Origin: Rhodospirillales bacterium
GTDB taxonomy: Bacteria; Pseudomonadota; Alphaproteobacteria; TMED109
DNA length: 64,000 bases
Direction: 5' to 3'
Assembly: GCA_028824295.1 (NCBI GenBank)
Contig: JAPPED010000032.1
Location: 1-64,000 of the forward strand
Numbering within the stretch: the stretch's first letter is position 1; every line of letters starts with the position of its first letter. The notes beneath the pieces were generated by a model, which saw only the letters and a list, made by a program, of their open reading frames with translations, was not told the origin of the DNA and made no database searches. Below, piece after piece: positions 6,167-29,369 of the stretch. Both the position numbers and the translations under genes were made by a program.

Positions 6167-8326
6167 TCAGATGGTGAAGAGATAGCGATAAAGCTTCAGA
6201 ATCAGTTGCTCTTCATTCTCTTCCAGCCATAGCCGCGCGGCGGGAGGCAGCGTCATCGTTCGGCAGGGTTGGTCCGCGATCATGGCTGTCTCGGCCGCAT
6301 ACGCGCCGAAAGCACTGCGCGGCTCGATTGCGTCGCCCGGGCCGTACTGGAACAGCCGCGTGCCTTTGGCATCGTAGGCGGAGGCCTGACCTCTCACCAA
6401 CAGCTGCAGGCCGTTCTGCTGCTCACCGATCGAGACAATGGCTTCACCGGCGTCGTAATCGCGAGGCTCCAGCCAGTCCTGAAGCTCGTCCACTACTGCC
6501 TCGAAAAGAACTTGCCGGTCGAGATGGCGCTCCATATCGCCGGCAACGCGCTCCAGCAGCGCGTCTCCCCAGCCATTTTCCTTGTGCCGGTCCGCCCGCC
6601 GCGCCGCGAGGACATGGTCCTCGCAGTGCTCCAGAGCGCGGTCCGCATTCGGCTCGAACCGAAGGTTGTCGCAAACGGAAGGGGGAAGATTGCGCTCCAG
6701 TCCGTTCTTGAGTTCCTCCGCCAGGGCGCAAAAAACGACCTGCACGCCAGCAGACCGCGCGGCGTGCGCAAACCTGCAGAGGCCGCTGATCGCCGAAAAG
6801 TCAAAACCTGAGACGCCACCGAAATCCAGCAGGATGTAGTCCGTTCGCCGGTTACCCGTCCAGGACTGCTTGAGGCGATCAATCAAGGGGCTCACGCTGC
6901 CGAAGAACATGTAGCCGCGCAGGCGAAAGCCCTGTATCCGTTCTCCCTCCATCCGCAGGATCGCGCGATCGGGAATGGGACGGATCCGCTTGCTGTGATG
7001 CTCGCGGGCAGTGAAGGTGGCTTCGATCAGTCCTACACGGCTGAGGCGGACGGCGAAGAACACCATGGTGATCGCCATGCCGACGCCCACTCCCTCGAGG
7101 AAGCCGAACGACACGATGGTGACGGCGATCAGCAAGAGAATCGCGTACTCCGCCCAGGGCGACCGCTTGCGGCTCTTCACGATCCACTCATCCAGTAGAT
7201 CGAGGCCGATGAAGAACAACGACCCCGCGATGAGCGGCAGGGGAACCAGGTTCAGGATCGAGTCGCCCAGAAGAACGACCGAACCCACCACCATGGCGGT
7301 GACGACGCCGGTCAGCCGTGTGTCCGCCCCGAACCTGTGGCTGAGGATCGAAAACGTAAACAACAAGCTGCCGACCGAGCCGGCGCCCAAGCCGGCGATC
7401 GCACTGGCTCCACCCGCTGCCCTGAACTCCCGGTTCCAGTCCAGTTCCACGTTGGTGGCCAGCTCGAGGCCGCTCAGATGCATCGCGACGGCGATCAGGG
7501 TCACCACGATCAACGTCAGCACGTTGGGAACCTGTGCCGCCACCTCGGCCCAGTCCACATGCGCCAGATCGCGGAGTTCGAAAGGAGGCCACAGGCCCCC
7601 TGTCGCCGTGCCGGCGAACAGCAGGCCCGCCGCCCTGGCCTCATCTCCGGAAAGCCCGATGACGGCAAAGACCAGGTGATAGAGCCCGGCGACAAGCAGG
7701 AGACTCGCCGGCAGGATGAAATGACTCTTCCAGCGCTTCGTGACCAGGAACAGGCCGAGGCCGTAGACCACGCCCGGGACCCATCTCCACAGCGAAGCGG
7801 GCTCCAAGAGCGTGGGGAGCGTCTCCAGCGTTGCCCCCATCAGCGACAGGGCTGCCGTGCACAGCATGACCCCGGTTCCGGCGATGAACCCGCCCGCCAC
7901 CGAATAGGGAATGAACTGGATCAGCTTGGCGAGCCGAAAATGTCCCACCAACAGAAAGCAGACGCCCGTCGCCACCGAACCGGCAATCACGACCGTGGCG
8001 GTGGTCATGAAATGCGCGAGGGCACTGTCCTGCGGGCCGATCGTGGCGCCGATCGCGACCAACACCATCGCGGAAGGCACCGTCACCATCGAGAGCGCGC
8101 CTCGGTAGCCGCTGGTGAGGGCAATCACCAGGCATACGACGAAGCCGCCGAACACCACCATGATCGTGCCCTGAGAGAGAAACGGCGCCAACGGGCCCGA
8201 AAAAACCAGCGCTCCGACTGAAATCAGGTATGCCGAGCCGATGATTCCCACGACCAGGCCGACCGACAGCGCCGACAGCAATTTTGTCGAGCGCAGGTCG
8301 GTGCGGAGTTCGGAAATCAGATTCAT
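6167..8326 (-). CDS. SulP-family transporter with STAS and cNMP-binding domains
   Basis: Predicted inner-membrane anion transporter (sulfate, bicarbonate or carboxylates). Residues 1 to about 420 are a run of hydrophobic segments of the SulP/SLC26 type, with a conserved region ending in GASAIAGLGAGSVGSLLF. A STAS domain follows (YILLDFGGVSGFDFSAISGL), and the last 140 residues resemble a cyclic-nucleotide-binding domain (EAIVSIGEQQNGLQLLVRGQASAY, GDAIEPRSAFGAY). STAS-cNMP fusions are known in bacterial SulP proteins and suggest ligand control of transport. The start is set at the ATG at 8326 (MNLISELR); a TTG at 8458 would add 44 residues without hydrophobic character. The transported ion is not defined. 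Confidence 0.87.
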   Translation of the reverse strand: MNLISELRTDLRSTKLLSALSVGLVVGIIGSAYLISVGALVFSGPLAPFLSQGTIMVVFGGFVVCLVIALTSGYRGALSMVTVPSAMVLVAIGATIGPQDSALAHFMTTATVVIAGSVATGVCFLLVGHFRLAKLIQFIPYSVAGGFIAGTGVMLCTAALSLMGATLETLPTLLEPASLWRWVPGVVYGLGLFLVTKRWKSHFILPASLLLVAGLYHLVFAVIGLSGDEARAAGLLFAGTATGGLWPPFELRDLAHVDWAEVAAQVPNVLTLIVVTLIAVAMHLSGLELATNVELDWNREFRAAGGASAIAGLGAGSVGSLLFTFSILSHRFGADTRLTGVVTAMVVGSVVLLGDSILNLVPLPLIAGSLFFIGLDLLDEWIVKSRKRSPWAEYAILLLIAVTIVSFGFLEGVGVGMAITMVFFAVRLSRVGLIEATFTAREHHSKRIRPIPDRAILRMEGERIQGFRLRGYMFFGSVSPLIDRLKQSWTGNRRTDYILLDFGGVSGFDFSAISGLCRFAHAARSAGVQVVFCALAEELKNGLERNLPPSVCDNLRFEPNADRALEHCEDHVLAARRADRHKENGWGDALLERVAGDMERHLDRQVLFEAVVDELQDWLEPRDYDAGEAIVSIGEQQNGLQLLVRGQASAYDAKGTRLFQYGPGDAIEPRSAFGAYAAETAMIADQPCRTMTLPPAARLWLEENEEQLILKLYRYLFTI

Positions 8327-12188: not shown

Positions 12189-14240
12189 TCACAACGCCCA
12201 ACGCAGTGCCGCCTGAAGGTCCCACATGGACGTGCTCTCGGTGTCAGGGCCCAGTCCCAACCCGACATCGCTGCTCAACGTGGCGCTCAGGCGCGGCGAG
12301 AACTCCTTGCGGACGCCCACCTGCAACCGCGCCCAGGAATCCGCCAAGCCGGATCGGAACTGGTATCCGTAGGCGGCAATGGCACTGTCTTCTTCAAAGT
12401 CATGCACGAACGCCAGGTCGCCGTAAAACCGGACTCCGGAATCCGGCATGACGATGCCAACCTCCAGGCCCAACGCCGCGTCCAAGGCTTCGTCGTGCTC
12501 CTGCCGCACGGCGACGCCGTCGCTGTCGGTGAAACGATCGAAATCCACGCCGGTCCAAGCGACGCGCAACCGTGGCGTCATCCGGAAGCTACCCACGCCA
12601 AGTCGCCAGCCCGCTTCCGCCGACACCCCCCAGGAATGTCCATCGATGCCGGTCGACAATTCCCGGCGCCGGTAGTCCACATCGGCTTCCCAAAGGCTGA
12701 AGCGCGCCTCGGTGGCCGCATAAGGCCCTCGTTTGCCGAACCAGGTCAGGCTCGCCCCGCCGCCGTACCCGAATGCTTCCGCATCCGACGCCGCCGCGCT
12801 TCGACCGTTTTCGACGTTGGCATCCACCCGGAACACGTGCCCGGTGAGCGCCGCCCGGAGGTCGATGTCCAGTCCGTCGATGGGCCGGTACACACCGACT
12901 TGCAGTTCGCTGCGGTCTTCCCGCCAACTGCCGCCGTCGAACGGGCGATTGTCGGCGTGGGCGTTCTCGTTGCGCCGGCCCCCATGCCGCACCCGCAGCC
13001 AGAGACTGCCGGGGTCGGGATCCGACCATGCATCGCCCGCGTCGGCCGGGTCGCGCAAGGTGCGGCTGAATCGTTCGCGCACGAGTTCGGTAAGCACCGA
13101 ATAGGCGTAAATCTGGGCCAGTGCTTCCGTCGCATTCCAGTATCGGGCGCGCTGTAGAAACGCCTGCGAGTCGTCCTGCCATTCCGCAAAACCGATGCGG
13201 CGATCGTCGGTCAAGTAGTTGATCCGAGCATCAACGCACGTGGCGAGTCCCTGGTCGTCCCTGTCGAAAGCGAAGCCTCCGTACTCCACCGCCGGGTCGA
13301 GCGCTGTCACGACAAAGCGCGAGTTCGAGTTGCGGGACACCTCCAGGTTGCCCACTTCGCCGCGAGCGATGGCATCCACGCGCCCGCTCGCAAGGGCATC
13401 CAGCTGGTCCTGATCCGTGGACGTGAGGAGCACTTCCTTCACCGTGCCCGTTGGCCCCTCGATACGCACGCGGTCCGCCAAGTTCTCGCTGGAGCCCGCA
13501 GCGGTAACCTGATAACGGGCGCTGCCGTCGGCAGTCAGGGAAGTGCCGTCGGCCAGGTGAATTGTGGTACCCGCCGCCAGATTGCCATTCGCTCCCGCCA
13601 CCCCGGTCAGCACCAGCAGCCGCTGCTCCCCGGTCGTACCGCCCAACGCCGCCACCCGCGCGGGGCCCAGGTCGTCATGCGACGCGTAGCGATGCGCGTC
13701 CTCAGCGCGCACCAGCAGCGATTGTCGAAATGCGATATGCCCGGAAGTGAACGCCACCTGCTCCACGCCATTGGCGTCACGCGTGCGCGCTTCCAGTATG
13801 GTGATGCCGCCTCCCACAAAGTCGTAATCAGGGCCCGCCGGCCGCAGCCAGATGTCCGGCCAGGTATTGATGCCCCTTCGGTCGAACGCAAGGCCAGCGT
13901 CGGCCATCGTCTCCAACGCGGTCAGGAGGTCAGCCTCGTAACCGCGATGGACATTGATTCCGGGGCCGTGCGGATCCAGGTTCTCGCTGAAACTCACCGG
14001 TCGGAAGTCCGCAAAAAAACCGTACGTCAGCCGCCGGTCATCCTCGATGCAAGATTCCCCGGAAAGGCGATGCCCGGCCGTTTCCGCATGTGCGGCCATT
14101 GCCGCTGACGCCCACACCACGGCGCACAGTCGCAATCCATGGCGGACGCTGGCTTGCGCCAATCGGGCGATGCCTCGCGATCGATGCCGTCTCGCCGCGT
14201 GCTGCGTGTCAGCGCCGACCGTGCCTGTTACCAGCGTCAT
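12189..14240 (-). CDS. Periplasmic-binding-protein/autotransporter-barrel fusion
   Basis: The 683-residue product joins two domains that are normally separate. A signal peptide ends near residue 52 (ASAAMAAHA). Residues 65 to about 375 resemble a type 3 solute-binding protein: TYGFFADFRPVSFSENL, GYEADLLTALETM, DFVGGGITILEARTRD, ARVAALGGTTGEQRLL and LASGRVDAIARGEV. Residues about 400-683 look like an autotransporter beta-barrel: alternating hydrophobic strands beginning LWLRVRHGG, with RSELQVGVYRP, GGGASLTWFG, AGWRLGVGSFRMTP and LQVGVRKEFSP, ending in RWAL. The barrel would anchor a ligand-binding module at the outer membrane. No transporter genes are adjacent. The domain calls are strong in pattern, but the exact families need profile searches. 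Confidence 0.75.
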   Translation of the reverse strand: MTLVTGTVGADTQHAARRHRSRGIARLAQASVRHGLRLCAVVWASAAMAAHAETAGHRLSGESCIEDDRRLTYGFFADFRPVSFSENLDPHGPGINVHRGYEADLLTALETMADAGLAFDRRGINTWPDIWLRPAGPDYDFVGGGITILEARTRDANGVEQVAFTSGHIAFRQSLLVRAEDAHRYASHDDLGPARVAALGGTTGEQRLLVLTGVAGANGNLAAGTTIHLADGTSLTADGSARYQVTAAGSSENLADRVRIEGPTGTVKEVLLTSTDQDQLDALASGRVDAIARGEVGNLEVSRNSNSRFVVTALDPAVEYGGFAFDRDDQGLATCVDARINYLTDDRRIGFAEWQDDSQAFLQRARYWNATEALAQIYAYSVLTELVRERFSRTLRDPADAGDAWSDPDPGSLWLRVRHGGRRNENAHADNRPFDGGSWREDRSELQVGVYRPIDGLDIDLRAALTGHVFRVDANVENGRSAAASDAEAFGYGGGASLTWFGKRGPYAATEARFSLWEADVDYRRRELSTGIDGHSWGVSAEAGWRLGVGSFRMTPRLRVAWTGVDFDRFTDSDGVAVRQEHDEALDAALGLEVGIVMPDSGVRFYGDLAFVHDFEEDSAIAAYGYQFRSGLADSWARLQVGVRKEFSPRLSATLSSDVGLGLGPDTESTSMWDLQAALRWAL

Positions 14241-16598: not shown

Positions 16599-17360
16599 CT
16601 AGTCGTAGTAGTCCTCTCCGGTTCGAATGGCCGACCATTGGGCAAGGTCATGGCCACACATGACCGCCGCTCCCGATCGCTCAATCCGTTTGATCTCGGC
16701 TTGGGACTTTGCATGCAGGTCTCGGTTCCACGTGTTCTTCGGAACGATCCCCAGATCCAGGTGCTTTCTGAGAGCTACCGCGTCGGAAGCCAACAGGAAT
16801 GCGCCGCTATTCGGCAGGCCGGCGAGGACGCCGGTCAGTCCTGGCGTATGCCCGGGGAGCGGCAACAGCACGATGCGCCCGTCACCGAAGATGTCCACCT
16901 CACCATTGATTTCAACGATCGGCATCGAATGTTCCCAGTCGGCGCTGAAGTAGCCCTTTTTCTCCATGTCCGGGCGCCGCGCCCGCGCAAGTTCATCCTC
17001 ATGGACATAAATGGCCGCCCTGGAGAAGAATTCGTTGCAGCCACAATGATCGCAATGCAAATGGGAGTTCACGACGACGTCGATATCCGCAGGCCTCAGG
17101 TTGACCCGGCGAAGCTCGCTAACGACGTTCTCGTCGTCTCCCATGATCGGAACCACCGACCTGGCGAGATTGCCCCATCTCTCCTGCGGGTTCTTGGCAA
17201 CCATCGGGTGGCAACCAGTATCGAACAGCACATTGCCCTGTGGATGCCGAAACAGGAAACAGGCAACCGGCAGGTCGATGGTTTCCTCGCGCGCTGCATC
17301 AGGCAAGTAGATGTGTTTCGACATCCGCACGCGACCGCCGGAAAGAACGTGCATCCTCAC
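16599..17360 (-). CDS. N-acyl homoserine lactonase-like metallo-hydrolase
   Basis: Metallo-beta-lactamase-fold enzyme of 253 residues. The dinuclear zinc motif HxHxDH appears as SHLHCDH (His100, His102, Asp104, His105), followed by His171 in LPGHTPG, Asp193 in LLASDAV and His237 in CGHD. Order and spacing, with DTGCHP near residue 48, match the AttM/AiiA AHL-lactonase group, which opens the lactone of quorum signals. Other hydrolases share this scaffold, so quorum quenching is likely but unproven. It lies next to a HigBA pair; an orphan LuxR-type protein sits at 37871-39022 and no luxI is in the window. Confidence 0.83.
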   Translation of the reverse strand: MRMHVLSGGRVRMSKHIYLPDAAREETIDLPVACFLFRHPQGNVLFDTGCHPMVAKNPQERWGNLARSVVPIMGDDENVVSELRRVNLRPADIDVVVNSHLHCDHCGCNEFFSRAAIYVHEDELARARRPDMEKKGYFSADWEHSMPIVEINGEVDIFGDGRIVLLPLPGHTPGLTGVLAGLPNSGAFLLASDAVALRKHLDLGIVPKNTWNRDLHAKSQAEIKRIERSGAAVMCGHDLAQWSAIRTGEDYYD

Positions 17361-18177: not shown

Positions 18178-19446
18178 CTACGTTTCTGGCTGGTTCTGCC
18201 ACGGCCTGAGCAACAGGTCGCGGTGGACCAGCACCGCGAGTGGCCAGCCCGGCCGCACCTTCAGGGTCGGCTGGACGTCGAGTTCCCGTTTCACCAGCGC
18301 GCCGGCGGCCTTGTCCGTTCCATCCTGCACGGACTCCCGGAACGCACGGGTCACGTCGCCTTCGTTCGCCAAGGCAAGTTCCGTGCCGATGCCGAGCAGC
18401 GACGACAGCAGGATCCCCCGGGCCAGCCGCCAGCCGTGCATGTCGACGGTGTCGCTGATCCCGGCATGGCCGGCCTCGTCGGTCGCCGGCAGGTTCTCGA
18501 TGACCACCGACGTTCCGTCCGGCAGGATCAGCCGGTGCCAGACCACGAGCGCCCGTTCCTGTCCGAACGCTACCTGGCTGTCGTAGCGGCCGAGGAGGCG
18601 GGTTCCGCGCGGCAGCAGGAGGACGGTGCCGGTCACGGAATCAAAGACGTCCTCCGTCAACTGGGCCACGACAAAGCCGGGGAGGTCCGAGTTCAGCCCG
18701 GTGATCAGCGCTGCCCGGAGCACGCTGCCGGCCATCACCTGCCACGGCGACAGCGGCTCTTCCAACAGATGCGGGTTGTAGATGTCGGCAGACGGCGCGG
18801 CTTCGAGGAACGCCTGCATCCGGGCCTGCCGGCCAGGCTCGCTCGCCGGGATCAGGCCCGGTTCGGGACCGGCCGGGACGCCGGCGTCAGGCGCCGGACC
18901 TGCAGCGGGCGGGCCGGCTCCCTGGACGCGAAAGAAGAGCTCCGAGCGCAGGGCCTCCGTCGCCCGCTTTGCCAGCCGTTTCCGTTCGGCCGCATCCTCG
19001 TCGGCCGGCAGGCCTGGCGCCGCCTCGTCCGGCACGGGCGGCGGCACGGGTTCGGGCACGGGCGCGAACGCGATCTCCTGGTAGGTCTCCGGCAGTCGCT
19101 CGATCGCCTCCGGATGTGGCTGGCCGGGATGCCAGACCTCCTGGACGGCGCCGCCTTCCTCCCGCGGCGGGGAATCGAGGGCCACCGTGAAGACGCCAAA
19201 CACCGCCAGCGCGGCAGCGCCTGCGAGCACGGCCAGGACCCTGCGGTTGATGCGCGTGACCCGGCGTGGCGACGCCCGGAGCTCAAAGTCGGCCGGATCG
19301 CCCTTCGCGGGTGCCTCGCCGGCACCGTCGGGGCCGGGCGGCAATTCATCCGTCACCTCGAGACCGGGCAGCGGGAGTTCGGGCTCGGCGTCGGGCGGTA
19401 GCCCGACGCCCGGAGCAGTGGGTGCCGACGCGCCCGGGCCGCTCAC
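18178..19446 (-). CDS. trbI: TrbI/VirB10 channel protein
   Basis: Component that spans inner and outer membranes in the type IV secretion channel. The N-terminal cytoplasmic part is proline-rich, one membrane helix lies at about residues 69-90, a Pro-rich periplasmic linker follows, and the C-terminal beta-domain shows VMAGSVLRAALITGLNSDLPG, VTGTVLLLPRGTRLLGRY and RLILPDGTSV, all typical of TrbI. It starts with GTG overlapping the trbG stop by 4 bp and is the last gene of the operon. Length (422) is normal and the gene looks intact. Confidence 0.95.
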   Translation of the reverse strand: MSGPGASAPTAPGVGLPPDAEPELPLPGLEVTDELPPGPDGAGEAPAKGDPADFELRASPRRVTRINRRVLAVLAGAAALAVFGVFTVALDSPPREEGGAVQEVWHPGQPHPEAIERLPETYQEIAFAPVPEPVPPPVPDEAAPGLPADEDAAERKRLAKRATEALRSELFFRVQGAGPPAAGPAPDAGVPAGPEPGLIPASEPGRQARMQAFLEAAPSADIYNPHLLEEPLSPWQVMAGSVLRAALITGLNSDLPGFVVAQLTEDVFDSVTGTVLLLPRGTRLLGRYDSQVAFGQERALVVWHRLILPDGTSVVIENLPATDEAGHAGISDTVDMHGWRLARGILLSSLLGIGTELALANEGDVTRAFRESVQDGTDKAAGALVKRELDVQPTLKVRPGWPLAVLVHRDLLLRPWQNQPET

Positions 19447-20417
19447 GACTGGCGCTCGATTCGCACCACCGTTTGCGGGTCCGTGCCCAGCCTGAGCTCG
19501 GCCACCTCGAACAGACGATCGACTACGTAGTACGACCCGCGTACGCGGTAATTCACCAGCGCCACCTCCCCCTCCGGTCCGATCAGGAAGAGAGGCGGCG
19601 CTTCGGCCGTTCCCGACGGGAACTGGATGAAGACGCGCCGGCCATCGTCGAAGGCCCGGACTGGCCGCCAGGGCGGCTGGTCACCGAGGATCCGATAGCC
19701 GAAATGCAGTGCCTCCGGCCGGATGCCGTCCGCCGCAGCGGCGCGATCCGGGCCCCGGCTCTTCACGGCCGCCGCCCGGAACGCCAGCTCCTCCTCCGGA
19801 TACGTCCAGGACACCGAGGCCATGTAGGTGATGTCCAGCGACTGGAGCTCCACGTGGTAGACCCGCCGGTCCGTCGCGATGACGAGGTTCGTCACCAGCT
19901 TCGACGCGGTCGGTTTCACCAGCACGTGCGGGCGCAGATTGGCCCCGCTGCCGCTCGCCGTTTCCGCCACTTTCCACCGGACGGTGTCCCCGGCCGAGAG
20001 CGACACCAGCTGCTCGCCCGGGGCCAGGGCCAAGTCCGTGACCTGGCCGGGAGCGGTATAGACTTGGTAGAGCGCGCCTTCCGTCCATGGATAGACTTGG
20101 ATCGCGTTCACGTAGCCGTCTGCCGCCGGTTCCAGGCGGGCCACGGCATTGGCCGCCCGCACCCGCTGCGCCGGGTCCGCGCTGGCCCTTTCCGGCGCCA
20201 CGTCGCTCGCGAGTGCCGACGCCACCGGCTTGAGTTGCCCCGGCAGCGGCAGCGGGGTCGGCACCGCGACCACCTCGGCCTCGGGCTCGATGATCCGCGT
20301 CGCCGGCACGGCCACCGCCGGAGCGGAACCGGGCCCGGGCCCGCTCCCGGTAGGGGGTTCGGTCACGCAGCCGGTCGTGACCACGGCAACGAACAGCACG
20401 GCCACACGATTCTTCAT
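19443..20417 (-). CDS. trbG: TrbG/VirB9 outer-membrane channel protein
   Basis: VirB9 homologue of 324 residues that forms the outer-membrane ring with VirB10. The ATG at 20417 follows GGGAG at good spacing and starts a lipoprotein signal, MKNRVAVLFVAVVTTGC, so Cys17 may be lipidated. The C-terminal domain contains GALYQVYTAPGQVTDLAL, NLVIATDRRVYHVELQS and GYRILGD, the TrbG/CagX pattern. It overlaps trbF by 4 bp at its start and trbI by 4 bp at its end. Confidence 0.94.
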   Translation of the reverse strand: MKNRVAVLFVAVVTTGCVTEPPTGSGPGPGSAPAVAVPATRIIEPEAEVVAVPTPLPLPGQLKPVASALASDVAPERASADPAQRVRAANAVARLEPAADGYVNAIQVYPWTEGALYQVYTAPGQVTDLALAPGEQLVSLSAGDTVRWKVAETASGSGANLRPHVLVKPTASKLVTNLVIATDRRVYHVELQSLDITYMASVSWTYPEEELAFRAAAVKSRGPDRAAAADGIRPEALHFGYRILGDQPPWRPVRAFDDGRRVFIQFPSGTAEAPPLFLIGPEGEVALVNYRVRGSYYVVDRLFEVAELRLGTDPQTVVRIERQS

Positions 20418-21115
20418 GGTTTGTCTCCCGTCACGAGGTCTCGCGACCAGTGGAAATCGGTGATGTAGATCCCGAGCGGATTCGCCCGGAGGGCTGCGGC
20501 ATCGGCGGGTGGCTGGACGACATAGGAAAGCAGGGCGGTATGCCGGCTGGTTTCGGCCGCCCCGCCCCGGAGCGATTCGTCCTCGCGCCAGCGCAGTTCG
20601 AAGCTGGTCGCCGATGACCGCACGGCGCTCGTCATTTCCACCGTGACCGTGCGTACGCCGACGTCCCGGAACGGCTCCGCCGTCCGCGCGTAATCGCTGA
20701 GACGCGTCGCGGCCCGACTGGTGACGAACGCGTAGGCGCGCAGCCAGTTCTTCCGCAGCACGACCGGGTCGATGGGAACCGCCCGGACGTGCTCCACGAA
20801 TTCCGCGAGGTGGTAGACGATCTGGCCGTCGTTCGGGCGATGCCCGTCCAGGGCCGGCCCCACCGCCCGCACAGCGCCCAGTGCGTCGACTTCCACGACG
20901 TAGGGCACCACGCTGCTGCGGCTCGCCATGTGCCAGAAGCCGGCAGCGAGCACGCCCGCGATCGCCAGCGCGCCAAGGCAGGCGAGGCGCCAGTTCCGGG
21001 CCTGGACGCGAGCGCTGCCGAGGCGCTCGTCCCACACCTGCGCGGCTTTCTGGTACGGGGTCACCGGGGCCGGGGCGCGGCCATAGGAGACCCCGGAGCG
21101 GGTCGGAGCACTCAT
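20414..21115 (-). CDS. trbF: TrbF/VirB8 inner-membrane protein
   Basis: VirB8 homologue of 233 residues, an inner-membrane scaffold for assembly. The cytoplasmic N-terminus contains the conserved TPYQKAAQVWDERLGSARVQ, a single membrane helix lies at residues 42-62, and the periplasmic domain shows VVPYVVEVDALG and ends NPLGIYITDFHWSRDL. Overlaps of 4 bp link it to trbL and trbG. Confidence 0.95.
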   Translation of the reverse strand: MSAPTRSGVSYGRAPAPVTPYQKAAQVWDERLGSARVQARNWRLACLGALAIAGVLAAGFWHMASRSSVVPYVVEVDALGAVRAVGPALDGHRPNDGQIVYHLAEFVEHVRAVPIDPVVLRKNWLRAYAFVTSRAATRLSDYARTAEPFRDVGVRTVTVEMTSAVRSSATSFELRWREDESLRGGAAETSRHTALLSYVVQPPADAAALRANPLGIYITDFHWSRDLVTGDKP

Positions 21116-22197
21116 TGGCGGTCCTTTCTGCGGCCTCGGTCGGGAGCAGGTCCGTCACCGGACTCCCAGCCCCCATCGGCCACCCTCGCGGCGTCGCGCA
21201 CCGCTGCCGCGGCTTCGCGGCGATCCGCCGTTGCGGGAGTTTCGTGGGGGCCGGAAGGCAGGCGCGCGGCCGCCCGGGCCGCGCCGGACGCGGTGTCCTG
21301 CACGCGGGCGGCACCGGCCGCGGCAATGCCCAGTGCACCCGCAAAGAAATCCCTGGCCCGGCGCGCCGTGCCGGCAGCGGCGCCGGCATCGAGCTGTGGG
21401 CCGCCGGCGATCAAGCCGCTTGCGACGGCCGGGCCGTGGATCCCGATCCCGAGCAGAGAGAACGCCGCCAGCAGCAGCGGCATGGCACGGGCGATGGTCA
21501 CTTCCTGACCTTGCAGCGCGCTCGCGATGTCCGCGAAGATCGTGCTGCCGATCCCGATGACCACGGCCAGCACCATGACCTTCACGCCGGACGCCATCAC
21601 GTTGCCGAGCACCCGTTCGGCGAGGAACGTGGTCCGGTTCCAGAGCGCGAACGGCACCAGTACGAAACCGGCCAGCGCCATCAGCTTGAACTCCACCAGA
21701 GTCACGAACATCTGCACCGCGAGCACGAAGAACGCGGCCACGACCCCGAGCCAGGCCAGCAGCAGAATCGCGATCTCAACCGCGTTCACCACGATTTCGG
21801 GAAACCCGATCAGTGTCTGGATATCGAGCAGGATCGGATGGGCGGCGGCGACACCGGTATTGGCGACGAAGCCTGGCCGAAGCAGGTCGTCGGGACGGAT
21901 GGGCGCGGCCGACGCCGTGAGTCCGAGGTCGACAAACGACGAGAAGATGATGTCCGCCAGAAGCTCGTAATTGTTGAGGATCAGGGCAAACGCGCCGACG
22001 TACAAGACCTTCCGCAACAGACCTGCGAACACGTCGCCCTCGGTCGTCAACGCCCATGCCAACCCGGCCAGAACGATGTCGACGGTGATGAGGATCCGGA
22101 TCAAAAAGCCGATGTCAGGCCCCAGCAGGCCAAAGCCGCTGTCGATGAATGTGAGGAACGTCTCGGTGAACCGGTCGACGACGTTGAGATCATCCAC
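21112..22197 (-). CDS. trbL: TrbL/VirB6 polytopic channel protein
   Basis: VirB6-family inner-membrane protein of 361 residues with several hydrophobic helices between residues 25 and 260 and the family signature around KLMALAGFVLVPFALWNRT. The last 100 residues are hydrophilic and rich in Ala, Arg and Gly, a common feature of TrbL tails. It overlaps trbF by 4 bp and lies 11 bp after trbJ. Confidence 0.94.
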   Translation of the reverse strand: MDDLNVVDRFTETFLTFIDSGFGLLGPDIGFLIRILITVDIVLAGLAWALTTEGDVFAGLLRKVLYVGAFALILNNYELLADIIFSSFVDLGLTASAAPIRPDDLLRPGFVANTGVAAAHPILLDIQTLIGFPEIVVNAVEIAILLLAWLGVVAAFFVLAVQMFVTLVEFKLMALAGFVLVPFALWNRTTFLAERVLGNVMASGVKVMVLAVVIGIGSTIFADIASALQGQEVTIARAMPLLLAAFSLLGIGIHGPAVASGLIAGGPQLDAGAAAGTARRARDFFAGALGIAAAGAARVQDTASGAARAAARLPSGPHETPATADRREAAAAVRDAARVADGGWESGDGPAPDRGRRKDRQ

Positions 22198-22208
22198 CTT
22201 GGCTGGCT

Positions 22209-22898
22209 CTACGGAAGCGGCGTGTACAGGTTGCCGGTGCCGATGGAGGCGCCGAACCGGGCCCGGGCCTCGCGGGCAGCCGTGTCCAGTCGGAGGCGCT
22301 CCGCGGCCTGCACGCGCTGGTGCGCGGCGAGCAGGCCCTGCGTGCGCAGCTGCTCGCGCACCTGCATGGCAGCGATTTGGTTACCGGCCTGCGTGACGGC
22401 CAGTGTTCCCGCGGCCCCCCGGGATTCGGATACGAGCCGCCCCAGCAACCGCTCAGTCTCCCGGGTTTCCTCGACCATGCCGGTCTGCACGTCGTGGCTG
22501 TGCCGCCAGCCAGCGCGGATCGCTTCGGCCCGGACCCGGGCCTGCTGGACCCGGGCGGTCCTTGCAAGCGTCGTCGCGACCGGGTCCGGGAACAGCGTCC
22601 CCGTCGTCACCGCCGCAGCGTTCCGGCCCCAGGAAATGCCGGGCGCATCGGCAAAGAGCGTGCGAAGCCAGGCCTTTCCGGTGTCCAGGATGGCGCTCCC
22701 GTCGAAGTTCAGCCGGAGCAGGTTCTGCTCCAGATTCGCCACCGTTTCCTGGAGATGACGGACGGCGGCGAGGGAACGGACGGCGGTCAGCAGGTTCTGG
22801 GCGTGGTTCGCGCCGTCGTAGACCGCGAACGCGTCCGCGGACCGGGGCGTGGCCGCCAGGGCGACCGCCAATGCCAGGACGAGTCCGCGCCGCCTCAC
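22209..22898 (-). CDS. trbJ: TrbJ/VirB5 pilus-associated protein
   Basis: Periplasmic VirB5-like protein of 229 residues with a signal peptide cleaved after about residue 23 (TPRSADA). The mature part begins FAVYDGANHAQNLL, typical for TrbJ, and is mainly alpha-helical with many Gln, Arg and Ala. It overlaps trbE by 4 bp. There is no separate trbK entry-exclusion gene between trbJ and trbL; only 11 bp separate them. Confidence 0.93.
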   Translation of the reverse strand: MRRRGLVLALAVALAATPRSADAFAVYDGANHAQNLLTAVRSLAAVRHLQETVANLEQNLLRLNFDGSAILDTGKAWLRTLFADAPGISWGRNAAAVTTGTLFPDPVATTLARTARVQQARVRAEAIRAGWRHSHDVQTGMVEETRETERLLGRLVSESRGAAGTLAVTQAGNQIAAMQVREQLRTQGLLAAHQRVQAAERLRLDTAAREARARFGASIGTGNLYTPLP

Positions 22899-25297
22899 GC
22901 CAGTCCGCTCCGGCGAGCGCTGCTCTCGGCCAGGAACGCCTCCAGAAACCGCTCCGGCCCGGCCCGGGCCATGGCGGCATCGATGCGCACCTGGTCCTCC
23001 TTGGACGAGGCCCCGGCAAACGTCAGCGCGATCTCGCCCAGCTGGAGATCGAACAGCCGGGCACCCCGTCGCGACTGGTAGTAGTAGTGACGCTTGGGCG
23101 TGGCTCGGGCCAGCAGTTCAATCTGCCGCTCGTTCAATCCAAGCCGGGTGTAGACCTCGCGGGCGGCCGGCTCCTGCGCGCGATCGTTCGGGAGGAAGAT
23201 CCGGGAAGGGCAAGATTCCAGGATCGCCGGCGCCACGGTGCTCGCCACGACGTCACTCGGCGACTGGGTGGCGAACACCACCGACACATTGCGCTTGCGG
23301 AGGGTCTTGAGCCAGTCGCGGATCTGCGCGGCGAACAGGGGATCGTCGAGGAAGACCCAGGCCTCGTCGAGCACCAACATCGTCGGCCGGCCGTCGAACC
23401 GATCGCGCAGCCGGTGGAACAGGTAACCTAGGACCGGTGCCGCGAGACCCTCGTTCTCGAGCAGCTCCTCCATCTCGAAACCCTGCACCTCGGACAGGGC
23501 CAGGGAATCGTCGGCGGCATCCAGCACCCGCCCGTGCGGGCCGGCGAGCGTCCACGGCTGCAGGGCGTCCCGGAGTTCCGGGCGCGTCAGCAACAGCCCA
23601 AGGCCCGTGAGGGTGCGCTCACCCGGCGGTGCGCCCGCCAGGTTGGAGAGAGCGTCCCACAGCTCGCGCCGTACGCCGGGGTCGATGTCGATGCCCGCGC
23701 GCCGGAGCAGCGCCGACGTCCACTCGAAAGCGAAGGCACGCTCGACTTCCAGTTCGATATGCCGCAGCGGCTGGAACGCCAGCTGCTCGGCAGCGCCGCC
23801 CAGGTCCAGGAAGGTGCCGCCCATGCCGAGCACCGCAGCCCGGCACGAGGCTCCCTTGTCGAACACGTACACCTGGGCGCCGGGATAGCGGCGGAATTGC
23901 AGCGCCAGCATGGCCAGGAGCACGGACTTCCCGGCCCCGGTGGGACCGACCACCAGCGTGTGTCCCACGTCGCCGACATGCAGCGAGAGCCGGAACGGCG
24001 TGGTGCCGCGCGTCTGCGCGTGGAGCAGCGGGGGACCACCGAGATGGGCGTTCCGTTCCGGCCCGGCCCAGGTGGCCGACAGCGGCATCATGTGCGCCAG
24101 GTTCAGCGTGTGGACAACCGGTTGCCGGACGTTCGCATAGGCGTGTCCCGGCAAGGATCCCAGCCACGCCTCGACCGCGTTGAGGCGTTCACGGATCGTG
24201 GCAAAGCCGCGACCGTGCAGGATCCGCTCGAGTTCGAGCTGATGTTCGGCGGCGACGGCTGCCGACCGGTGCCGCACGGTCACGCTCGTGGTGATGTGCC
24301 CGAACGCGACCAGGTCCTCGCCCAGCTCCTGCAGCGCCCGATCCGCGTCGGCGGCCTTCACGTCGGCATCCGAATTCACCAGCGCCGCCTCCTGACTGAA
24401 GACGACCTCCTTCAACATGGCCAGCACCGACTTCCGCTTGGCGAACCACTGCCGCCGGCAGCGCCCGAGCTCGCGCTCCGCTTCGTCCTTCCCGAGGACG
24501 AGGAACCTGGTCATCCACCGGTAGGCGAACGGAAGGTCGTTGAGGTCGTCCAGCAGCCCGGGGCGTGTGAGGTTCGGGAACCCGAGCACGGTCAGGGTGC
24601 GGAGATGAAGGTCTCCCAGCATGGGTTCGATGCCGCCGGCAAGCGGTGTATCGGCCAGAACTGCATCCAGGTGGGCCGGAATCCCCGGTACCGTGATGCG
24701 TCCGTCCGACGCGGAAACCGTGCCGTGCAGGTAGGTGAGGGTGGCCTCGTCCGACATCGGCGCCAACCTCGGCATCACGTCTCCCAAGAGCATGAAGGCA
24801 CGGTCGGTCCGTGCCTGAAAGTTCTCGAGGTGCGTCCGCCAGGTGATCGACCCGCCAGCCTCGGCGGCGGCCCGCTCGACCAAGGTCTCAGACGCCCGAG
24901 ACCACGAATCGGCCGGCGGAAGGTAGGTGAGCGTCAGCCGGAACAGCGTCTCGAAATGACGGCTCCTCCCGGCAAATTCCCGGCGCCGTTCATCGTCGAC
25001 CAGCTGCGAGAGGCGATCGGGAAACGTGCTTCTCGGATAGCTCCGTGCCGGAACGCGTTCGGCGTCGAAGTACAGGGCCCAGCCGGACCCGAACCGCCGC
25101 AGCACGTTGTTAACGCGAGCGGTCACGGCCATCAGTTCGGATTCGGTGGAGCTCTCGAGATCGGGACCGCGGAACCGGGCTGAGCGCTGGAACGATCCAT
25201 CCTTGTTGAGGATGACTCCCGGCGCGACCAGGAACGCCCAGGGCAGGAGGTCGGCAAGACCGGCCGGCCGGGCCCGGAACTCCCGGAGATTCAGCAT
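22895..25297 (-). CDS. trbE: TrbE/VirB4 secretion ATPase
   Basis: VirB4-type ATPase of 800 residues that powers pilus assembly and transfer. The CagE/TrbE N-terminal region is followed by the Walker A VGPTGAGKSVLL near residue 450 and the Walker B MLVLDEAWVFLDDPLF near 640, then FATQSPSDV. Length and motifs are complete. The ATG at 25297 overlaps the trbD stop by 7 bp. Confidence 0.96.
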   Translation of the reverse strand: MLNLREFRARPAGLADLLPWAFLVAPGVILNKDGSFQRSARFRGPDLESSTESELMAVTARVNNVLRRFGSGWALYFDAERVPARSYPRSTFPDRLSQLVDDERRREFAGRSRHFETLFRLTLTYLPPADSWSRASETLVERAAAEAGGSITWRTHLENFQARTDRAFMLLGDVMPRLAPMSDEATLTYLHGTVSASDGRITVPGIPAHLDAVLADTPLAGGIEPMLGDLHLRTLTVLGFPNLTRPGLLDDLNDLPFAYRWMTRFLVLGKDEAERELGRCRRQWFAKRKSVLAMLKEVVFSQEAALVNSDADVKAADADRALQELGEDLVAFGHITTSVTVRHRSAAVAAEHQLELERILHGRGFATIRERLNAVEAWLGSLPGHAYANVRQPVVHTLNLAHMMPLSATWAGPERNAHLGGPPLLHAQTRGTTPFRLSLHVGDVGHTLVVGPTGAGKSVLLAMLALQFRRYPGAQVYVFDKGASCRAAVLGMGGTFLDLGGAAEQLAFQPLRHIELEVERAFAFEWTSALLRRAGIDIDPGVRRELWDALSNLAGAPPGERTLTGLGLLLTRPELRDALQPWTLAGPHGRVLDAADDSLALSEVQGFEMEELLENEGLAAPVLGYLFHRLRDRFDGRPTMLVLDEAWVFLDDPLFAAQIRDWLKTLRKRNVSVVFATQSPSDVVASTVAPAILESCPSRIFLPNDRAQEPAAREVYTRLGLNERQIELLARATPKRHYYYQSRRGARLFDLQLGEIALTFAGASSKEDQVRIDAAMARAGPERFLEAFLAESSARRSGLA

Positions 25298-25560
25298 CCG
25301 TGGTAGTTCCGGTGCCGCAGGTGGCGGGCGAGCACGTCCACGAACTGCGCATCATGCCGGGCGCAGAACACCCCAATCGCCTGCACCACGATCCAGAGGA
25401 CCAGGCCGGCGACCCACTGCTGAAGCCCCAGCCCGACGGCGGCGGACAGCGTCCCGTTCAGGATGGCCAGGGACCGCGGCACGCCAGCCATCATGATCGG
25501 CTCCGTGAGGGCGCGGTGCAGCGGCACCTCAAAACCCTCCGGGGGTGACGAGCGGATCAC
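25291..25560 (-). CDS. trbD: TrbD/VirB3 inner-membrane protein
   Basis: Short VirB3-like protein of 89 residues. It opens with the family pattern GFEVPLHRALTEPIMMAGVP and has one or two hydrophobic helices (residues 30-70) before DAQFVDVLARHLRHR, which is typical of TrbD. The start is the GTG at 25560, overlapping the trbC stop as GTGA; an upstream extension in the same frame is not conserved in type. Confidence 0.93.
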   Translation of the reverse strand: MIRSSPPEGFEVPLHRALTEPIMMAGVPRSLAILNGTLSAAVGLGLQQWVAGLVLWIVVQAIGVFCARHDAQFVDVLARHLRHRNYHGC

Positions 25561-25889
25561 GGAAGCAGAGCCCCGCCGCCGAACGAGAAGAACGTGAGGA
25601 AGAAGGATGCGGCCCCAAACGCGATCGAGAGGCCGAAGACGATCTGGATCATCCGGCGGAACCCGCCGGAGGTGTCTCCGAAGGCGAGTGTGAGACCGGT
25701 CACGGTGATGATGATCACCGCCATGATGCGCGCGACCGGTCCTTCGACCGAAGTCAGGATGCTCTGGAGCGGCGCTTCCCACGGCATGCCCGATCCAGCC
25801 GCGAACGCCGGTCCGGCCGCCCCGAGCGCAGCAAGCAGCACAAGCGCCGCGCGGATCAAGTGCCGGCGTGGAGTGGGTTTGATCATCAT
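25557..25889 (-). CDS. trbC: TrbC/VirB2 pilin
   Basis: Conjugative pilin precursor of 110 residues: a long signal peptide cleaved after about residue 30 (AAGPAFA), then MPWEAPLQSILTSVEGPVAR and two hydrophobic helices flanking the polar loop DTSGGFRRM, the standard VirB2/TrbC arrangement. Cyclisation by TraF is known for IncP TrbC and could apply here because a TraF homologue lies in the same operon. Confidence 0.94.
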   Translation of the reverse strand: MMIKPTPRRHLIRAALVLLAALGAAGPAFAAGSGMPWEAPLQSILTSVEGPVARIMAVIIITVTGLTLAFGDTSGGFRRMIQIVFGLSIAFGAASFFLTFFSFGGGALLP

Positions 25890-26863
25890 GTGGAAGGTCT
25901 CCCTGAATGGTCCGGGGCGGCGCCGAGGTGTCGGCAGGCGTAGCTGCCGTCCGGACCCAGCCCGTGGACGGCAAGCAGCGTTTCAACGCGGCGCCGCGTG
26001 CCGGTGCGGCCGACGAACACCACAAGATCGACGGCCTCGGCCACGAGCCGGCGGTCGACCGCGACGGCCGCTTCCTGGATCAGCTGTTCGAGGCGGGCGA
26101 GTGCCGCCGCAGCCGAATTGGCGTGGAGCGTCGCCAGTCCGCCGGGATGGCCCGTGTTCCACGCCTTCACGAGGGCCAGGGCTTCCGGGCCGCGCACTTC
26201 GCCGACGACGATCCGGTCCGGACGCAGCCGGAGCGTTGAACGCAGCAGGTCGGAGAGCGTGACGTGGCCCGGCTGGGTGCGGAGCGCCACGCAATCGGCC
26301 GTTTCGCAAACCAGCTCCCGGGTGTCCTCCAGCAGCACGACGCGGTGTCCCAGATCGCGCATTTCGTGCAGGAGCGCGTTGGCTAGCGTCGTCTTGCCCG
26401 ACGAGGCGCCGCCCGCCACCACGATGTTGCGGCGGGTCCGGACCGCCTCCCGCAGCAGCTCCGCCTGTGTGCGGCTCAAGGCTCCGTTCTCGACGTAGGC
26501 GTCCAGGACGATGACGCGGCCGGCCGGCCGGCGAATCGAGAAGCACGGATCGCGCGCCACCGGCGGCAGCACTCCCTCGAAGCGCTCGCCCGTCGCGGGC
26601 AGCTCGGCGCTCACGATCGGGTGGTCGGCCCCGGATGCCCGACCCGTCTGGCTGGCGACCAAACGAACGACGCGCTCGACCGCTGACGGGGCGAGGCAGA
26701 CCCCGGTGTCCACACGACCCTGGATCGCGTGGTCCAGCCACAGACGGCCGTCGGGATTGACCGTGATTTCCAGGACATGCGGGTTGGCGAGCGCACGGCT
26801 CACCTCGGAACCCATGGCGGTACGCAGCATCGCGACACCGCGGGCCGCCCCGTGGTCATGCAT
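25886..26863 (-). CDS. trbB: TrbB/VirB11 traffic ATPase
   Basis: Hexameric VirB11-type ATPase of 325 residues. Motifs include VNPDGRLWLD in the N-terminal domain, the Walker A GGASSGKTTLANALL near residue 150, the Asp box LLEDTREL, the Walker B RIVVGEVRGPEAL and the His box GGLATLHANS. The ATG at 26863 overlaps the copG stop by 8 bp; a longer open frame to 27040 lies within copG and is not family-like. Confidence 0.95.
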   Translation of the reverse strand: MHDHGAARGVAMLRTAMGSEVSRALANPHVLEITVNPDGRLWLDHAIQGRVDTGVCLAPSAVERVVRLVASQTGRASGADHPIVSAELPATGERFEGVLPPVARDPCFSIRRPAGRVIVLDAYVENGALSRTQAELLREAVRTRRNIVVAGGASSGKTTLANALLHEMRDLGHRVVLLEDTRELVCETADCVALRTQPGHVTLSDLLRSTLRLRPDRIVVGEVRGPEALALVKAWNTGHPGGLATLHANSAAAALARLEQLIQEAAVAVDRRLVAEAVDLVVFVGRTGTRRRVETLLAVHGLGPDGSYACRHLGAAPDHSGRPST

Positions 26864-27329
26864 CGTCGGTCGCCGGAGCTGAGACCGGAGCCGTGAAGTC
26901 GGCGGCCGTGAAGAAATCGCGTTCCGCGGGGCGGATCTCGTCCAGGACGTCGTCGAGGAGGGTTCGCCCGCCGGCCACCCGTTCGGCCAGCTGCGTGACG
27001 AAATACTCGAAGCGTTCCAGCCCCAGCACCCGGGCGGCATCCTGTTCGTCGTCGGGCACCGGGGGTGTTACCACCAGGAAGTAGCGAACGAACAGGGCCA
27101 ACGTTTCCGAGATGATGACGTGATCGCGGGACAGGCGGCCAAGCGACCGCGTCACCCGGTCAAGGCGTCGGATCAGCACCTCGTCCCGACGGTCGGCCGC
27201 CTCCGGTGTCAGGAAGCTCAACAGCGCCGCCTCCACCAGGGCCGTCTGCGTGACACCGCGGCGCGCCGCCTCGCGGGCGAGCTGACTGCCGAGATCGGCG
27301 GGCACCCGGACATTCTTGGAAGGGTTCAC
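26856..27329 (-). CDS. CopG-family ribbon-helix-helix protein
   Basis: 157 residues. The N-terminal 45 residues (NVRVPADLGSQLAREAARRG, TQTALVEAALLSFL) form a ribbon-helix-helix DNA-binding motif; the rest is helical, with SRDHVIISETLALFVRYFL in the middle. Such proteins sit between traG and trbB in many Trb-type integrative elements and are presumed to regulate the operon or assist relaxosome formation; direct data for this one do not exist. It overlaps both neighbours (4 bp and 8 bp). Confidence 0.9.
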   Translation of the reverse strand: MNPSKNVRVPADLGSQLAREAARRGVTQTALVEAALLSFLTPEAADRRDEVLIRRLDRVTRSLGRLSRDHVIISETLALFVRYFLVVTPPVPDDEQDAARVLGLERFEYFVTQLAERVAGGRTLLDDVLDEIRPAERDFFTAADFTAPVSAPATDDA

Positions 27330-29191
27330 CGGGGCCGCTCCACGCGCACCGGGATCGCGCCCGCGTCCTGGAAAAGGCGCTGCTCGGACCGTGTCGGCGC
27401 GGAGGCAGAATCCCGGCCCGAGGCCGCCGTAGCCACGGCAGGGAGAGCCAGGCCGCGCCAGTCGTCCCCGCGTCGCGGGGGAAAATCGCGGGTGCCGGGT
27501 GGTGGTGGCGGCAGGCAGCGACCCCGAAGCGCACGGTCCTCGAAATAGCGAAGCTTCCGAGCCCGGATGGGCGGACAGCCGGCGACAAACACCAGCTGCT
27601 CATCGGGATCGAGCTGCATGACCTCGCCGGGTGTCAGCAGCGGCCGGGCGTTCTCCTGCTGGGAAACCGTGACTCGGTTGAGCCACGGCGCTAGTCGGTG
27701 CCCGCCGTAGTTCCGCTGGAAGCGTGCCGCCGTGGCCGCTCCCACCATGTCGCTGACTCGTCGCGCCGTGCGGTCGTCGTTCGTCGCGAACGCGATGCGC
27801 ACGTGGCAGTTGTCGAGGATGGCGTTGTGCTCGCCGTAGGCCTTCGAGATCTGGTTGAGGGACTGCGCGACCAGGTAGGCCCGCATGCCGTAGCCCGCCA
27901 TGAAGGCGAGCGTGCTCTCGAAGAAATCCAGGCGGCCGAGGGCGGGAAACTCGTCGAGCATCATGAGCAGTCTGTGATGGGGATGCCGACGGTTCTCGCC
28001 CTCGAGCCGTTCTGTCAGCCGCCGGCCGATCTGGTTGAGCAGGAGGCGGACCAGTGGCCTCGTGCGCGACAGGTCGGACGGCGGTACCACCAGGTAGAGC
28101 GAGACCGGGTGGCGGGCGTGCATGAGATCGGCGATGCGCCAGTCGGAGGACCCGGTGACATGGGCGATGGCCGGATCGCGGTAGAGGGCCAGGAAACTCA
28201 TGGCGGTCGACAGGACGCCCGAGCGCTCGTTGTCGGACTTGTTGAGCAGTTCGCGGGCGACCTGGGCAACCACCGGATGAGGGCGCCCGGAGGCGTGGCC
28301 GCCGAGATGCGGCACGTGCATCATGCGGGTCAGCGTCTGTTCGAATGAATGCGCGGGATCCGACAGGACGGCCGCGACCCGCGCCAGCGTCTTGTCGCGC
28401 TCGGCGTACAGCACGTGGAGGATGACGCCTACCAGCAACGCGTGACCGGTCTTTTCCCAGTGGTTCCGGCGGTCAAGGGCGCCCTCCGGATCAACCAGAA
28501 TGTCGGCGATGTTCTGGACGTCGCGAACTTCGTTGGGGCCGCGCCGAACCTCCAGCAACGGGTTGTAGCGGGCCGAGCGGGGGTCAGTCGGGTCGAAGAA
28601 CAGGCAGTGGGAGAAGCGCGCACGCCAGCCCGCGGTCAGCCTCCAGTTCTCCCCTTTGATGTCGTGGATGACCGTCGATTCCGGCCAGGCCAGGAGGGTT
28701 GGCACCACCAGGCCGACCCCCTTGCCGGAGCGGGTCGGCGCGAACGCCATGATGTGTTCCGGCCCGTCGTGCCGGAGGTACCGGCGGCCAAACCGGCCAA
28801 GCATCACTCCCCGGTCCACCAGCAGCCCGTGCCGCCTGATGTCAGCCGTGCCCGCCCAGCGTGCGGAACCATGCGAAGTGGCCTGGCCACCCGTGCGGGC
28901 CCGCCAGAGCGAGCAGCCCACCGCGATCACGATCCCGGCGATCCCGGCGAACGCGGCCAGTCCACCGGTACGGGCAAACACCCCGGGGGCAGCGGCACCG
29001 AAGGCGTACCACCATTCGAACAGTTGCCACGGCCAGTAGAGGTCGAGACCCAAAGCCTCAAACCCCGGTGGACCCAGGGCGTACTGATCCCGAAGCAACG
29101 CGGCCGTCCATTGGGTCGCACCCCACAGCACGGCGCCCACCGCGATCGTGACCAGAAATCCCTGACCGATCAGCAGTCGCGTGGGCGTCAT
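27326..29191 (-). CDS. traG: TraG/VirD4 coupling protein
   Basis: Type IV coupling protein that brings the relaxase-DNA complex to the secretion channel. Two membrane helices lie in the first 110 residues. The Walker A is APTRSGKGVGLVVP near residue 150, with VIHDIKGENW just after, and the Walker B LLMMLDEFPALG lies near residue 412, followed by AQSLNQI. The ATG at 29191 has GGAG at eight bases and is preferred; an ATG at 29227 would add 12 residues. About 178 bp separate it from the relaxase gene. The Pro- and Arg-rich C-terminus overlaps copG by 4 bp. Confidence 0.95.
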   Translation of the reverse strand: MTPTRLLIGQGFLVTIAVGAVLWGATQWTAALLRDQYALGPPGFEALGLDLYWPWQLFEWWYAFGAAAPGVFARTGGLAAFAGIAGIVIAVGCSLWRARTGGQATSHGSARWAGTADIRRHGLLVDRGVMLGRFGRRYLRHDGPEHIMAFAPTRSGKGVGLVVPTLLAWPESTVIHDIKGENWRLTAGWRARFSHCLFFDPTDPRSARYNPLLEVRRGPNEVRDVQNIADILVDPEGALDRRNHWEKTGHALLVGVILHVLYAERDKTLARVAAVLSDPAHSFEQTLTRMMHVPHLGGHASGRPHPVVAQVARELLNKSDNERSGVLSTAMSFLALYRDPAIAHVTGSSDWRIADLMHARHPVSLYLVVPPSDLSRTRPLVRLLLNQIGRRLTERLEGENRRHPHHRLLMMLDEFPALGRLDFFESTLAFMAGYGMRAYLVAQSLNQISKAYGEHNAILDNCHVRIAFATNDDRTARRVSDMVGAATAARFQRNYGGHRLAPWLNRVTVSQQENARPLLTPGEVMQLDPDEQLVFVAGCPPIRARKLRYFEDRALRGRCLPPPPPGTRDFPPRRGDDWRGLALPAVATAASGRDSASAPTRSEQRLFQDAGAIPVRVERPR

Positions 29192-29369
29192 CGGCACGGT
29201 CTCCGGCGGCGGCGGACCGGCGAGCATACAGCTCGACTAGAACAAAGCAAGAACTTTCGTAAAACATGTCAGACGTATGGCCGGGTGCGCGCTGTCAGGA
29301 CGTTCTACCCGTTCACCGGTCCCGACCCTGGCGGCGTTGACTCGCTGCTCCCCACCTCCGTCGCGAAGC

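What the first reader, a model, noticed from the sequence alone, without database searches (positions are those of the whole stretch)
12189..14240. Solute-binding protein fused to an autotransporter-type barrel
Seen: one uninterrupted frame with a signal peptide, a region that reads like a type 3 periplasmic solute-binding protein (GYEADLLTALETM, DFVGGGITILEARTRD, ASGRVDAIARGEV) and about 280 C-terminal residues with the alternating pattern of an autotransporter barrel. Known: binding proteins normally work free in the periplasm with ABC or TRAP importers, or as sensor domains, and autotransporter passengers are usually beta-helical or enzymatic. Inference: the ligand-binding domain is tethered at the outer membrane, on the surface or in the periplasm, as a scavenging or sensing module. 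No transporter gene is next to it. I consider this the strongest candidate for unusual biology in the window.
Basis: partly seen in the sequence, partly recalled or inferred. Interest (0 to 1): 0.72.

Follow-up and report, generated by a model that had tools for sequence, protein, structure and literature searches.

The report
Amino-acid-binding protein on autotransporter barrel
A bacterium that is probably a sponge symbiont makes a protein in which an amino-acid-type capture domain, normally loose inside the cell envelope, is joined to the outer-membrane barrel that bacteria use to push proteins onto their surface; this natural pairing was not found described and could show how a folded binding protein is exported.

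Summary
The fusion is real. Window 14240-12189 (minus strand) is one 683-residue frame. Residues 439-656 match the Pfam autotransporter barrel (E 1e-23). The full-length AlphaFold2 model, though weak overall (pLDDT 52), has exactly 12 C-terminal strands after a helix, and Foldseek matches EspP, EstA and BrkA. Residues about 64-372 are a family-3 (amino-acid-type) solute-binding protein: a family profile matches solved amino-acid-binding proteins (E 9e-8), a domain model (pLDDT 94) matches arginine- and glutamine-binding proteins, and the carboxylate-binding-type Arg152 is invariant. A roughly 57-residue insert in lobe 2 is peculiar to this family. The same fusion occurs in two other MAGs (72-86% identical; one copy broken by an IS1595-type element). 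Both halves are under purifying selection, so this is not an assembly join. Five other gammaproteobacterial genomes carry the same binding protein without a barrel. The window's genome also has two probable Cache-domain-barrel fusions. Most likely it is an EstA-like type Va autotransporter displaying a tethered amino-acid-type receptor. Surface location and ligand are inferred. A conserved far-apart Cys pair, and published failures of MBP-autotransporter fusions, make topology the key open question. New passenger variant of a known secretion type.

The parts
12189..14240 (-). Whole gene, 683 aa: export signal, SBP family 3 domain, alpha-linker, 12-strand autotransporter barrel
   Evidence: One uninterrupted frame; same architecture in L002 and, split by an IS, in L001/L003
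14085..14240 (-). N-terminal export signal, residues 1-52; likely core 37-52 ending A-H-A|E; residues 1-36 poorly conserved, possible later start
   Evidence: Sequence by eye; 78% identity and dN/dS 0.4-0.8 over residues 1-36 against SB0662, 14% identity against COS4
13125..14084 (-). Solute-binding protein family 3 domain, residues 53-372
   Evidence: phmmer, profile search, Pfam on relatives, AF2 pLDDT 94 and Foldseek E 1e-15
13443..13610 (-). Lineage-specific beta-rich insert in lobe 2, about residues 211-266, absent from ordinary SBP_bac_3 proteins
   Evidence: Alignment A8; strands in the model
13785..13787 (-). Arg152, the only column invariant in all 19 aligned SBPs; equivalent of the carboxylate-binding Arg of amino-acid SBPs
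   Evidence: the functional role of this Arg is established knowledge of amino-acid SBPs
13356..13358 (-). Glu295, invariant in this family, next to the position of the usual amine-binding Asp (here Gly294)
   Evidence: role inferred
14049..14051 (-). Cys64, one of two Cys of the mature protein, conserved in the family
13236..13238 (-). Cys335, conserved partner candidate of Cys64
   Evidence: the disulfide is inferred
13011..13136 (-). Alpha-linker, residues 369-410: helix to about 391, then a loop into the first strand
   Evidence: Helix 360-391 in the AF2 model (low local confidence); TIGR01414 match begins at 386
12192..13010 (-). 12-strand autotransporter beta-barrel, residues 411-683
   Evidence: PF03797, 12 strands E413-425 to E670-679, Foldseek to EspP, EstA, BrkA

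Best explanation
This is a type Va autotransporter of the compact, EstA-like kind (no beta-helix stalk) whose passenger is an amino-acid-type solute-binding domain. Proposed steps: (1) Sec export by the N-terminal signal (inferred). (2) Insertion of the C-terminal 12-strand barrel into the outer membrane with the helix 371-391 through its lumen (the barrel is shown by profile and fold matches; insertion is inferred from the family). (3) Passage of the SBP domain to the cell surface, where it stays attached because no cleavage motif is evident (inferred). (4) Closure of the two lobes around a small carboxylate-bearing ligand through Arg152, with Glu295 possibly replacing the usual Asp (inferred from alignment). 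Its use would be to concentrate, sense or stick to amino-acid-like compounds in the host's tissue fluid rather than to feed a dedicated ABC importer. It arose by adding an autotransporter barrel to a secreted SBP that related Gammaproteobacteria still carry without a barrel.
For: Barrel. SBP fold and ligand-site Arg. Same fusion in three genomes with dN/dS about 0.2-0.3 in both halves. Barrel-less orthologues (about 345-400 aa) in G005, G286, G312, G092 and G780. Only a roughly 40-residue helical linker between SBP and first strand, as in EstA-type passengers; EstA architecture as described in PMC9289746. No ABC or TRAP permease beside it. A second class of ligand-binding-type domain (Cache-like) on barrels in the same genome.
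Against: Surface location is not shown. Cys64 and Cys335, 271 residues apart, are conserved and would enclose most of the domain if bonded in the periplasm. Published engineered cases report that periplasmic folding of MalE (an SBP) and disulfides hinder autotransporter translocation (PMC1533851) and that MalE fused to the bare IcsA barrel was not expressed (PMC3298707). The full-length model is poor (mean pLDDT 52). The C-terminus ends in ...RWAL, not the usual terminal aromatic. The ligand is unknown, and the amine-binding Asp position is Gly.
Confidence: 0.6

Rival explanations
1. The barrel is only an outer-membrane anchor: the SBP domain folds in the periplasm, stabilised by a disulfide, and stays there facing inward, catching solutes that enter through porins or signalling within the envelope.
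For: Conserved far-apart Cys pair; folded or disulfide-bonded passengers often stall; the same domain is periplasmic or lipoprotein-anchored in barrel-less relatives (P0002 has a lipobox-like LASAC).
Against: The alpha-linker and 12-strand barrel are those of a translocator, not of a simple anchor. Some disulfide-bonded domains do get displayed on autotransporter barrels.
Confidence: 0.27
2. The SBP fold is used as a protein or host-surface adhesin, and small-molecule binding is residual.
For: Most autotransporter passengers studied are adhesins or enzymes; the lineage-specific beta insert could be a contact surface; the usual amine-binding Asp is missing.
Against: Arg152 and the TTGE ligand motif are conserved, including in barrel-less relatives.
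Confidence: 0.15
3. The passenger is an enzyme derived from an SBP, like cyclohexadienyl dehydratase.
For: Best solved-structure sequence matches are the CDT lineage.
Against: The best profile and fold matches are the non-catalytic ancestor AncCDT-1. The catalytic general acid described in PMC7683729 has no clear counterpart by the alignments.
Confidence: 0.04
4. Assembly artefact or recent chance join of two genes.
For: The genome is a draft in 35 contigs.
Against: Identical junction in two other assemblies at 72-86% identity, with purifying selection in both halves.
Confidence: 0.01

Closest known systems
Type Va (monomeric) autotransporters, especially EstA-type with a globular passenger directly on the linker
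   Same: C-terminal 12-strand barrel with alpha-linker, N-terminal signal, globular passenger without beta-helix (PMC9289746)
   Different: The passenger is a two-lobed solute-binding fold, not a GDSL esterase, protease or adhesin; the C-terminal residue is Leu
Bacterial extracellular solute-binding proteins family 3 (PF00497; arginine/glutamine/lysine-binding proteins, AncCDT-1)
   Same: Fold, Arg152, GTTGE motif, GRVDA motif
   Different: About 57-residue insert in lobe 2, Gly at the usual Asp, conserved Cys pair, no adjacent ABC genes, barrel attached
Engineered MalE (MBP) fusions to the AIDA-I or IcsA translocators
   Same: An SBP placed on an autotransporter barrel (PMC1533851, PMC3298707)
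   Different: Laboratory constructs in which folding hindered translocation or the direct barrel fusion was not expressed; this one is natural and conserved
Cache-like autotransporters L017 and L018 of the same genome
   Same: Ligand-binding-type extracellular domain on an autotransporter barrel
   Different: Unrelated passenger, longer barrel region, Cache match below Pfam's curated cut-off

Membership tests
Type Va autotransporter | C-terminal barrel matching the autotransporter profile | tested here: met
   PF03797 E 1.2e-23; TIGR01414 E 3.8e-21
Type Va autotransporter | 12 strands preceded by an alpha-helical linker | tested here: met
   12 C-terminal strands and helix 360-391 in the AF2 model, linker at low local confidence; Foldseek to EspP, EstA, BrkA
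Type Va autotransporter | N-terminal Sec signal | tested here: inconclusive
   Hydrophobic stretch and AHA|E by eye; no predictor available
Type Va autotransporter | C-terminal aromatic (beta-signal) residue | tested here: inconclusive
   Ends RWAL; the relative ends RWTVE; the aromatic lies two to three residues before the end
Type Va autotransporter | Passenger reaches the cell surface | not testable with these tools
   Needs cell fractionation or surface labelling
SBP_bac_3 (PF00497) | Profile match above the curated cut-off | tested here: inconclusive
   Window protein below detection; COS4 orthologue 17.9 bits; barrel-less orthologues 23-29 bits against 26.4, one above
SBP_bac_3 (PF00497) | Two-lobed periplasmic-binding-protein fold | tested here: met
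   AF2 pLDDT 94, Foldseek top hits nearly all amino-acid SBPs, E 1e-15 to 1e-12; the alignment used did include ordinary SBPs
SBP_bac_3 (PF00497) | Carboxylate-binding Arg | tested here: met
   Invariant in 19 sequences
SBP_bac_3 (PF00497) | Amine-binding Asp in lobe 2 (amino-acid binders; not universal in the family) | tested here: not met
   Gly294 at that column, invariant Glu295 beside it; other aligned SBP_bac_3 proteins also vary there, so this bears on ligand rather than on family membership
ABC importer binding protein | Permease and ATPase genes adjacent | tested here: not met
   None in the window neighbourhood nor evident next to barrel-less relatives by reading their ORFs
Cyclohexadienyl dehydratase | Catalytic general acid Glu173 | tested here: inconclusive
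   No clear aligned counterpart; Glu295 lies nearby

The most novel reading that the evidence does not exclude
A natural autotransporter that carries a folded, possibly disulfide-locked, two-lobed solute-binding protein across the outer membrane and keeps it as a surface receptor for amino-acid-like host metabolites, one example of a wider practice in these bacteria of mounting sensor-type domains (SBP, Cache) on autotransporter barrels.
Probability: 0.4. Interest if true: 0.75.

Novelty: new variant of a known kind. Interest (0 to 1): 0.58.

Why it matters
Known autotransporter passengers are mostly beta-helical adhesins, proteases or esterases; the held literature searched here describes no natural solute-binding passenger. 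Laboratory attempts to put an SBP on an autotransporter barrel ran into folding limits. A conserved natural example would show how such a passenger is handled, would give a ready surface-display scaffold for ligand-binding proteins, and would suggest that symbionts can present metabolite receptors outside the outer membrane. It also gives a lineage in which the same SBP exists free, apparently lipid-anchored, and barrel-anchored.

Tried and rejected
Assembly join: rejected, same junction in two other MAGs. Phage or plasmid origin: no relative among IMG/VR contigs for the SBP domain, and plasmid hits are to the barrel part of other autotransporters or none for the SBP. Wider distribution: the SBP profile over 385 genomes of the class, 399 of the phylum, 28 of its own order and two other orders found no further barrel fusion. 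The first full-length AF2 run had a shallow alignment and gave a poor SBP half, so the domain was rerun with a deeper alignment. Barrel fragments aligned badly with the full-length set in A5 and A6 and were trimmed. CDT enzyme idea: kept as a minor rival only. The nearest autotransporter barrels in other genomes (L024, L026, L025, L006) have repetitive passengers, not SBPs.

Full report
Observation. The frame lies at 12189-14240 on the minus strand: 683 residues, one start, one stop. The C-terminal part is an autotransporter barrel beyond doubt: PF03797 84.6 bits and TIGR01414. An AlphaFold2 model of the whole protein, weak overall (pLDDT 52), still shows exactly twelve strands from 413 to 679 preceded by a helix at 360-391. 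Its best solved-structure matches are autotransporters: EspP, EstA, Hbp, BrkA, AIDA-I and NalP.

SBP half. The window protein alone misses Pfam's SBP profile, but phmmer finds the cyclohexadienyl dehydratase lineage of family-3 SBPs (E 7.7e-4), and a four-sequence profile finds AncCDT-1 at 1e-7 and other amino-acid SBPs more weakly. A barrel-less orthologue exceeds the SBP_bac_3 cut-off. Aligned with eleven ordinary SBPs from related genomes, Arg152 is the single invariant column; that Arg is known to hold the ligand carboxylate in amino-acid SBPs. A model of the domain with that alignment has pLDDT 94, and its top fifty PDB matches are nearly all amino-acid-binding proteins, headed by AncCDT-1, with arginine- and glutamine-binding proteins and the GluR0 ligand core among them. 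The alignment partly imposes the fold, but the sequence matches are independent of it. A segment of about 57 residues (about 211-266) in lobe 2 is found only in this family. The usual amine-binding Asp is Gly294, with an invariant Glu295 beside it.

Relatives. The fusion recurs in COS4_bin_45 (72%, L002) and in SB0662_bin_61 (86%, L001 plus L003). I recall both MAG series as marine-sponge metagenomes; that is from memory, and a sponge-symbiont origin of the window is inferred from it. In SB0662 the gene is cut near codon 120 by an element encoding an IS1595-type transposase. Between the window gene and these copies, dN/dS is about 0.2 for the SBP and 0.2-0.3 for the barrel. The same SBP with the same insert occurs without a barrel in one genome of the same genus (G005, with a lipobox-like sequence) and in G286, G312, G092 and G780. 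Distribution is sparse: 5 of 385 class genomes including this one, and none further in 399 phylum genomes. The natural reading is that a free SBP gained a barrel once in this lineage; no tree was built to test this.

Surroundings. Beside it are a GAF-PAS histidine kinase with receiver and DNA-binding domains, a small putative outer-membrane protein, a metallo-beta-lactamase-fold hydrolase, a HigBA-type pair and a Trb-type conjugation cluster from 18.2 kb on. A TrbI-like frame and a HigB-like frame, read by eye, also stand near the gene in SB0662 (L003). No ABC or TRAP permease is next to it; a SulP permease is about 4 kb away.

Mechanism. Shown: the two domains, their order, and their conservation. 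Inferred: export, barrel insertion, surface location, ligand binding. With a linker of about 40 residues and no stalk the layout is that of EstA, described in PMC9289746 as the only published passenger structure with a catalytic domain and no beta-helix. What is unusual is the demand on translocation. Engineered MalE on the AIDA-I translocator showed that periplasmic folding interferes with passage (PMC1533851), MalE on the bare IcsA barrel was not expressed (PMC3298707), and disulfide-bonded segments hampered Hbp secretion though some nanobodies are displayed (PMC5802855). The two Cys of the mature window protein, 64 and 335, are conserved in the family. Hence the main rival is that the SBP stays in the periplasm on an outer-membrane anchor.

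Theme. The same genome has two paralogous proteins (59% identical) of about 900 residues with a weak Cache match (E 2.9e-5 and 7.5e-4 for dCache_2, below the curated cut-off) before an autotransporter barrel. If real, this lineage mounts several kinds of sensor domain on autotransporter barrels.

Verdict. It is a new passenger variant of a known secretion type, of moderate to high interest, and experimentally tractable.

Noticed in passing
L017 (G000:C27:151467-152084, -) and L018 (G000:C27:56777-57232, +): Two paralogous ~900-aa proteins of the same genome with a Cache-like N-terminal region and a C-terminal autotransporter barrel.
   Followed up: partly
L001 876-1838 and L003 ~6372-6429: IS1595-type transposase gene and matching terminal sequence (TATACGAGAGTGCCAT) interrupting the orthologue in SB0662_bin_61 near codon 120, at two contig ends.
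   Followed up: yes
window 18178-29227: Trb-type conjugation cluster (TrbI, TrbL, TrbE-like, secretion ATPase, TraG coupling protein) on the minus strand; the fusion gene lies just beyond its TrbI end, and a TrbI-like frame is also near it in L003.
   Followed up: partly
L012 6974-9669: In G286 the barrel-less SBP start overlaps the end of a class-III aminotransferase gene, with an unrelated SBP (SBP_bac_8) upstream: a possible hint at an amino-compound ligand.
   Followed up: no
L015 1660-3384: In G005 the barrel-less SBP (lipobox-like) stands convergent with an ion-channel protein carrying TTVGYGD, a potassium-channel-type filter.
   Followed up: no
window 16599-17360: Metallo-beta-lactamase-fold protein resembling quorum-quenching lactonases by eye; only the fold was confirmed.
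   Followed up: no
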